A stretch of DNA of 64,000 bases, from positions 2,315,486 through 2,379,485 of the forward strand of contig NZ_CP019434.1 in the NCBI RefSeq assembly GCF_001975725.1, in the 5' to 3' direction. The translations under genes were made by a program, and so were the position numbers. This document shows positions 63,393 through 64,000 of the stretch, one piece after another; position 1 is the first letter of the stretch, and each line of letters begins with the position of its first letter. The notes beneath the pieces are model-generated. The model was not told the DNA's origin and made no database searches. It saw only the letters and a program-made list of their open reading frames with translations. Source of the stretch: Acidihalobacter ferrooxydans. GTDB lineage: Bacteria > Pseudomonadota > Gammaproteobacteria > DSM-5130 > Acidihalobacteraceae.

Positions 63393-63683
63393 GATGCCCC
63401 TATGCGGTCTGAACGCACCGCGAACCGCTAAGTTCCCCAGGTTCGTCTGGCATCTACTAAACAACCGCAAAAACAGCGCATCAGAGATATTTATTGCAGA
63501 AACATGACAGCTTCATAAGACTCATAAAAAACTAAAAATATAGACTGAAAAAACATAAAAACAAAACTTAAATTACATTACTTTACCCCCAGTATTTGAA
63601 CCAACAGAAAATTTTCAGGTCTTACTCCGTGAATGCCAAACGCATTCGTCCATTCGAACGCGAAGAAGCAAGGAGAAGAATTA
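63393..63683. promoter_or_regulatory. divergent, AT-rich promoter region of the GH15 and SOR genes
   Basis: From about 63470 to 63650 the sequence turns strongly AT-rich (runs such as ATAAAAAACTAAAAATATAG and AACAAAACTTAAATTACATT), unlike the coding DNA around it. It must hold the promoter of the SOR gene. No convincing -35/-10 pair was found; TTGAAC at 63596 is the best -35-like hexamer but lacks a good partner. Confidence 0.45.
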
Positions 63684-64000
63684 ATGACAGATTCAAATCC
63701 GATTATCGCCATCAACCAAACCAGGGTTGCTAATCGCCCGGAAACCTATGCAACCATGATGAAAGTCGGCCCCAAGGTGTGTATCACCACTGCCTCGCAC
63801 CCCGGATTCCTCGGTTTCGAACAACTTATTCAGACCGGTATTCATCCGATGGCCGGCCGTTTTGGCGGCGGCGCGGTGGACATGCGCAAAACGCTCAACC
63901 CCATGGGCATGTACCAGTACACCGTATGGAAAGACGTGCATTCGCACGAAGAAATGCACCACGACAATTTCAAGGAAATCTACGAACTCTGTGGCGCCTG
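63684..64000 (+). CDS. sor: sulfur oxygenase reductase (SOR), 3'-truncated by window end
   Basis: The first 105 codons are visible. SOR disproportionates elemental sulfur with oxygen to sulfite, thiosulfate and sulfide, using a mononuclear non-heme iron and a persulfidated cysteine in a 24-mer shell. MKVGPKVCITTASHPGFLGFE contains the catalytic cysteine (Cys33, aligned with Cys31 of Acidianus ambivalens), and SHEEMHHDNF carries the first two iron ligands as His88 and His92 (His86 and His90 there). Cys103 and the next, partly seen TG- codon 106 fit the Cys-x-x-Cys of the archaeal enzyme. The iron ligand Glu lies beyond the window. AAGGAGAAG precedes the ATG by six bases. Confidence 0.93.
   Translation, partial: MTDSNPIIAINQTRVANRPETYATMMKVGPKVCITTASHPGFLGFEQLIQTGIHPMAGRFGGGAVDMRKTLNPMGMYQYTVWKDVHSHEEMHHDNFKEIYELCGA

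What the first reader, a model, noticed from the sequence alone, without database searches (positions are those of the whole stretch)
63684..64000. Bacterial sulfur oxygenase reductase at the right edge
SOR is best known from thermoacidophilic archaea and few bacteria. The visible N-terminus has the persulfide Cys and both His iron ligands at the spacing of Acidianus ambivalens SOR. In a gammaproteobacterium with ordinary housekeeping genes it implies a cytoplasmic sulfur-oxidation step. It has its own AT-rich upstream region and a strong ribosome site, which suggests high expression or recent acquisition.
Basis: partly seen in the sequence, partly recalled or inferred. Interest (0 to 1): 0.72.

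Follow-up and report, generated by a model that had tools for sequence, protein, structure and literature searches.

The report
Known bacterial sulfur oxygenase reductase gene
The window's right edge holds the start of an intact gene for sulfur oxygenase reductase, an enzyme that splits elemental sulfur into sulfite and sulfide; the genome is that of a known sulfur- and iron-oxidizing acidophile in which such genes were already reported, so the find is correct but ordinary.

Summary
The open frame at 63684 is the N-terminal third of an intact 312-aa sulfur oxygenase reductase (PF07682, 473 bits). Beyond the edge it keeps the third iron ligand (E116) as well as C33, H88, H92, C103 and C106; all six are invariant in 38 aligned SORs. 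It is 83% identical to a solved SOR (6qpa) and falls in a clade of proteobacterial SORs. The genome length, 3,448,835 bp, equals that published for Acidihalobacter ferrooxidans V8, a sulfur- and iron-oxidizing acidophile whose genome paper already reports SOR genes and missing sox genes. So the gene is known and expected. "Recent acquisition" is not supported: a family relative has the same sor-to-gadB block, another has a decayed sor at that place, and common descent within the family is not rejected (AU p 0.17). What I add is context. The next gene encodes a sulfide:quinone reductase-like protein closest to the Acidianus ambivalens enzyme, followed by a DUF1641 protein. This sor/sqr linkage recurs in 11 of 27 related loci. 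A strong terminator-like hairpin separates sor from sqr. Most likely SOR disproportionates cytoplasmic sulfur and the SQR-like enzyme re-oxidizes the sulfide. Activity was not testable here.

The parts
63684..64000 (+). sor, sulfur oxygenase reductase, codons 1-105 and part of 106 (gene continues 622 bases past the window to G000:C1:2380107; 312 aa in all)
   Evidence: PF07682 473 bits; C33 at 63780, H88 at 63945, H92 at 63957, C103 at 63990; E116 lies beyond the edge and is present
63670..63675 (+). AAGGAG ribosome-binding site, 8 nt before the ATG
   Evidence: read directly
63471..63640 (+). AT-rich leader upstream of sor (30.6% GC, window mean 62.1%), presumed promoter region; no sigma-70-like match on the sor strand

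Best explanation
This is an intact, canonical bacterial sulfur oxygenase reductase of the sulfur-oxidizing acidophile Acidihalobacter ferrooxidans V8. Shown here: full-length frame, family membership, all catalytic residues, phylogenetic place, and linkage to a gene for an SQR-like flavoprotein and a DUF1641 protein. Inferred: the enzyme forms the usual hollow 24-mer with a mononuclear non-heme iron (H88, H92, E116) and a sulfur-binding Cys (C33), and disproportionates cytoplasmic elemental sulfur or polysulfide with O2 to sulfite and sulfide, with thiosulfate forming non-enzymatically. The neighbouring SQR-like enzyme would re-oxidize the sulfide to sulfur or polysulfide, passing electrons to quinone and returning substrate to SOR. 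Thiosulfate could go to DoxDA, and persulfide sulfur to the sHdr/lipoate-binding-protein system encoded elsewhere in the genome. This SOR/sHdr route fits the lack of soxB.
For: Intact frame and PF07682 473 bits. Six of six catalytic residues, invariant in 38 SORs. 83% identity to solved SOR 6qpa; H. neapolitanus and T. paradoxus SORs are characterized enzymes. Genome length equals CP019434.1, whose paper reports SOR and no SoxAX/B/YZ; soxB absent in G000 but present in four relatives. The next gene, 66 bases downstream, is most like the A. ambivalens SQR-type structure 3h8i/3h8l (184.8 bits), with C189 and C364 aligned to C178 and C350 and conserved in every relative that covers them. sor/sqr linked in 11 of 27 main-clade loci. 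sHdr-like cluster with HdrB/HdrC-type proteins, two GcvH-like proteins and DsrE, plus a DoxDA fusion, are present. The SOR/SQR cycle is described for Sulfolobales (PMC11143483).
Against: No activity or expression data. SOR activity could not be detected in seven At. caldus strains despite sor genes (PMC5023260), and acidithiobacillar sor has been called a possible molecular fossil (PMC9592645). A decayed sor in a family relative (G003) shows the gene can be dispensable. A terminator-like hairpin between sor and sqr means co-transcription cannot be assumed. 16 of 27 main-clade sor loci show no close SQR within the DNA held (several contigs are short). NCBIfam's SulOxRed equivalog cut-off (400 bits) is not reached (287.6), probably because that model leans to archaeal sequences.
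Confidence: 0.9

Rival explanations
1. The gene is a relic or poorly used copy: intact, but contributing little to sulfur oxidation, which runs through sHdr and DoxDA/TetH-type steps.
For: A family relative has a decayed sor at the same place; two other relatives lack it; SOR activity not measurable in seven At. caldus strains; sHdr-like cluster and DoxDA present.
Against: Frame intact with all catalytic residues and a strong ribosome site; conserved across many genera; sox missing in this species, leaving fewer alternatives.
Confidence: 0.15
2. Recent horizontal acquisition in this strain.
For: sor has the lowest GC of 47 gene-like ORFs compared (54.4% against 62.8 +/- 3.2); in one tree it groups with a Halothiobacillus SOR and 6qpa (87/82) rather than with its family relative; the family-held tree is 9.6 log units lower.
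Against: The relative G002 holds the same block in the same order (sor-sqr-DUF1641-gltS-like-poxB-gadC-gadB) at 82-89% identity for most genes; G003 has sor and gadC remnants beside gadB. Holding the two family SORs together is not rejected (AU p 0.17). G002's sor is also low in GC against its locus (56.0 against 65.5%). GC3 is within the window's range. No tRNA in the 17 kb around it.
Confidence: 0.12
3. A SOR with changed chemistry, for example mainly an oxygenase with little reductase activity, as the title of the T. paradoxus SOR paper reports.
For: Closest solved relative is a bacterial SOR (6qpa, 83%); the T. paradoxus enzyme is reported with atypically low reductase activity (title cited in PMC7398979).
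Against: No active-site change separates this protein from canonical SORs; which organism 6qpa comes from was not established here.
Confidence: 0.15

Closest known systems
SOR of PDB entry 6qpa, and characterized mesophilic bacterial SORs (Halothiobacillus neapolitanus, Thioalkalivibrio paradoxus)
   Same: Full-length alignment, 83% identity to 6qpa, all catalytic residues, same clade
   Different: No feature found that sets the query apart; a 2-residue deletion near residue 219
Acidianus ambivalens SOR (2cb2 and mutants)
   Same: 40% identity over the whole length; C31, H86, H90, C101, C104, E114 all matched
   Different: Archaeal, thermophilic branch; separated from the proteobacterial clade with full support
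Acidianus ambivalens SQR (3h8i/3h8l, deposited as NADH oxidase; SQR identity and organism from general knowledge)
   Same: Nearest solved relative of the protein encoded next to sor; two of three cysteines matched
   Different: Belongs to the neighbouring gene; third Cys (C129) is Ser in the query
Acidithiobacillus SORs
   Same: 70-80% identity, same family; some also linked to the SQR-like gene
   Different: Separate subclades; in two loci (At. sulfurivorans and, outside the genus, Thiomonas) the order is sqr-DUF1641-sor

Membership tests
Sulfur oxygenase reductase (PF07682, EC 1.13.11.55) | Full-length match to the family profile | tested here: met
   473.5 bits against a cut-off of 25, profile 2-300 of 300
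Sulfur oxygenase reductase (PF07682, EC 1.13.11.55) | Iron ligands His86, His90, Glu114 | tested here: met
   H88, H92, E116; invariant in 38 rows; essential in S. tokodaii SOR (PMC7398979)
Sulfur oxygenase reductase (PF07682, EC 1.13.11.55) | Essential Cys31 plus Cys101 and Cys104 in the pocket | tested here: met
   C33, C103, C106
Sulfur oxygenase reductase (PF07682, EC 1.13.11.55) | Tree position inside SORs | tested here: met
   Inside the proteobacterial SOR clade; archaeal SORs outside
Sulfur oxygenase reductase (PF07682, EC 1.13.11.55) | NCBIfam SulOxRed NF047630 equivalog cut-off | tested here: not met
   287.6 bits against 400; an annotation threshold, not a biological defining feature; relatives such as 6qpa were not scored against it
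Sulfur oxygenase reductase (PF07682, EC 1.13.11.55) | Hollow 24-mer and O2-dependent sulfur disproportionation | not testable with these tools
   Needs purified protein
Sulfide:quinone oxidoreductase (neighbouring gene) | Two redox-active cysteines and the FAD fold | tested here: met
   C189 and C364 match 3h8l C178 and C350; Pyr_redox_2 55 bits
Sulfide:quinone oxidoreductase (neighbouring gene) | Sulfide-dependent quinone reduction | not testable with these tools
   Needs an assay

The most novel reading that the evidence does not exclude
In Proteobacteria, sor, an Acidianus-type SQR gene and a DUF1641 gene form a recurring module: a dedicated cytoplasmic unit in which SOR makes sulfide, the SQR captures it, and the DUF1641 protein is the SQR's partner. 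The papers searched here do not describe this linkage.
Probability: 0.35. Interest if true: 0.4.

Novelty: already known. Interest (0 to 1): 0.15.

Why it matters
It confirms a published genome annotation and adds the catalytic-residue check, the gene's place in the SOR tree and its neighbourhood. The linked SQR-like gene gives a simple, testable account of how the cell could gain energy from SOR, which conserves none itself. The species is useful in that its soxB is missing while its relatives keep theirs, so the weight of SOR in a bacterium can be tested.

Tried and rejected
Relatives on viral contigs: none. Paper search for SOR with DUF1641: none; DUF1641 with sulfide gave two papers that do not concern this linkage by title and abstract. 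First relative search failed on wrong coordinates and was repeated. Considered and rejected: chance frame (473 bits), pseudogene in this genome (no stop, all residues), the longer start at 63633. Plural 'reductases' in the genome paper: only one SOR found in the genome.

Full report
What was checked. The reported gene starts at ATG 63684, after AAGGAG at 63670-63675. The genome search places the window at G000:C1:2315486-2379485 of a single 3,448,835-bp contig. DNA past the edge (L002) shows the frame running to a stop at L002:5108, i.e. 312 aa. PF07682 matches end to end at 473.5 bits. It is the only SOR in the genome.

Residues and tree. In an alignment of 38 SORs, A. ambivalens C31, H86, H90, C101, C104 and E114 correspond to C33, H88, H92, C103, C106 and E116, with no exception in any row. 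The query is 84% identical to Halothiobacillus and Rhodanobacteraceae MAG sequences, 83% to PDB 6qpa, 82% to a family relative (G002), 70-80% to Acidithiobacillus and 40% to A. ambivalens. The proteobacterial clade is separated from archaeal SORs with full support in the trimmed set; deeper branches in the larger set involve long branches and are not relied on.

Organism and prior report. The contig length equals exactly that of Acidihalobacter ferrooxidans DSM 14175 (V8), CP019434.1. [quoted passage not shown] SoxB is indeed absent here and present in all four family relatives searched.

Acquisition. sor has lower GC (54.4%) than any of the 47 gene-like ORFs of the window used for comparison (mean 62.8, sd 3.2), though its GC3 (68%) is above that of six of them. 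G002's sor is similarly low against its own locus (56.0 against 65.5%), so composition is at least partly a property of the gene. G002 holds sor-sqr-DUF1641-gltS-like-poxB-gadC-gadB in the same order; G003 keeps gadB beside decayed gadC and sor pieces and lacks the genes between; G001 and G004 show no SOR. The AU test does not reject query and G002 as sisters (p 0.172). Presence in the family ancestor with later losses, or transfer of a block between family members, both fit; a recent single-strain acquisition is the weaker reading.

Neighbourhood. Downstream on the same strand lie: an FAD protein (L002:5175-6467) whose best solved relative is 3h8i/3h8l, with two of its three cysteines kept; a DUF1641 protein at the cut-off (21.1 against 21 bits); a 106-aa protein with a sub-threshold DsrE match (E 0.008); a peroxiredoxin; then glutamate-synthase-like, pyruvate-oxidase-like, GadC-like and glutamate decarboxylase genes. 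The SQR-like gene is linked to sor in 11 of 27 main-clade loci: nine with sor first, two with sqr-DUF1641 first; in two of the nine the contig ends inside sqr. In 369 genomes of the class only eight have a close copy of this SQR (68% identity or more), and four of those lie next to sor. The linkage is therefore not chance, though it is not universal. Between sor and sqr a hairpin with a T-run folds at -23 kcal/mol for the 53-nt stretch (z -3.6), typical of an intrinsic terminator, so sor may be transcribed largely alone.

Mechanism. SOR disproportionates sulfur without conserving energy; sulfide goes to SQR, whose product returns to SOR, as described for Sulfolobales (PMC11143483). The genome also has an sHdr-like cluster (HdrB- and HdrC-type proteins, FAD protein, two GcvH-like proteins, DsrE) and a DoxDA fusion (DoxDA also noted in PMC6397845). 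All biochemical steps for this species are inference.

Verdict. Observation confirmed; gene ordinary for its clade and already reported for this genome. The only part that may be unreported is the recurring sor/sqr/DUF1641 linkage; only open-licence papers were searched, so absence of a description is weak evidence.

Noticed in passing
L031:9441-9960 (G003:C1 about 909440-909960): Decayed sor (pieces in several frames, a TGA) at the place corresponding to the intact sor block of G002, next to a decayed gadC and a gadB that reads through.
   Followed up: partly
L045, L046, L047, L048: A divergent SOR clade in the class (about 31% identity to the query) groups with PDB 9rdn and keeps all six catalytic residues; not linked to the SQR-like gene.
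   Followed up: partly
L002:7469-7789: 106-aa protein with a sub-threshold DsrE match, found in the query locus but not at the relatives' sor loci.
   Followed up: partly
L009/L011 and L012/L013: Acidithiobacillus sulfurivorans RW2 and Acidithiobacillus sp. HP-2 each carry two sor copies on different contigs.
   Followed up: no
L026:7001-7951 and L044:8236-9144: Two SORs at 47-50% identity to the query on long branches; their position in the tree is unsettled.
   Followed up: no
L066:2876-9990: sHdr-like cluster with two GcvH-like (lipoate-binding type) proteins and a DsrE protein in the same genome.
   Followed up: partly
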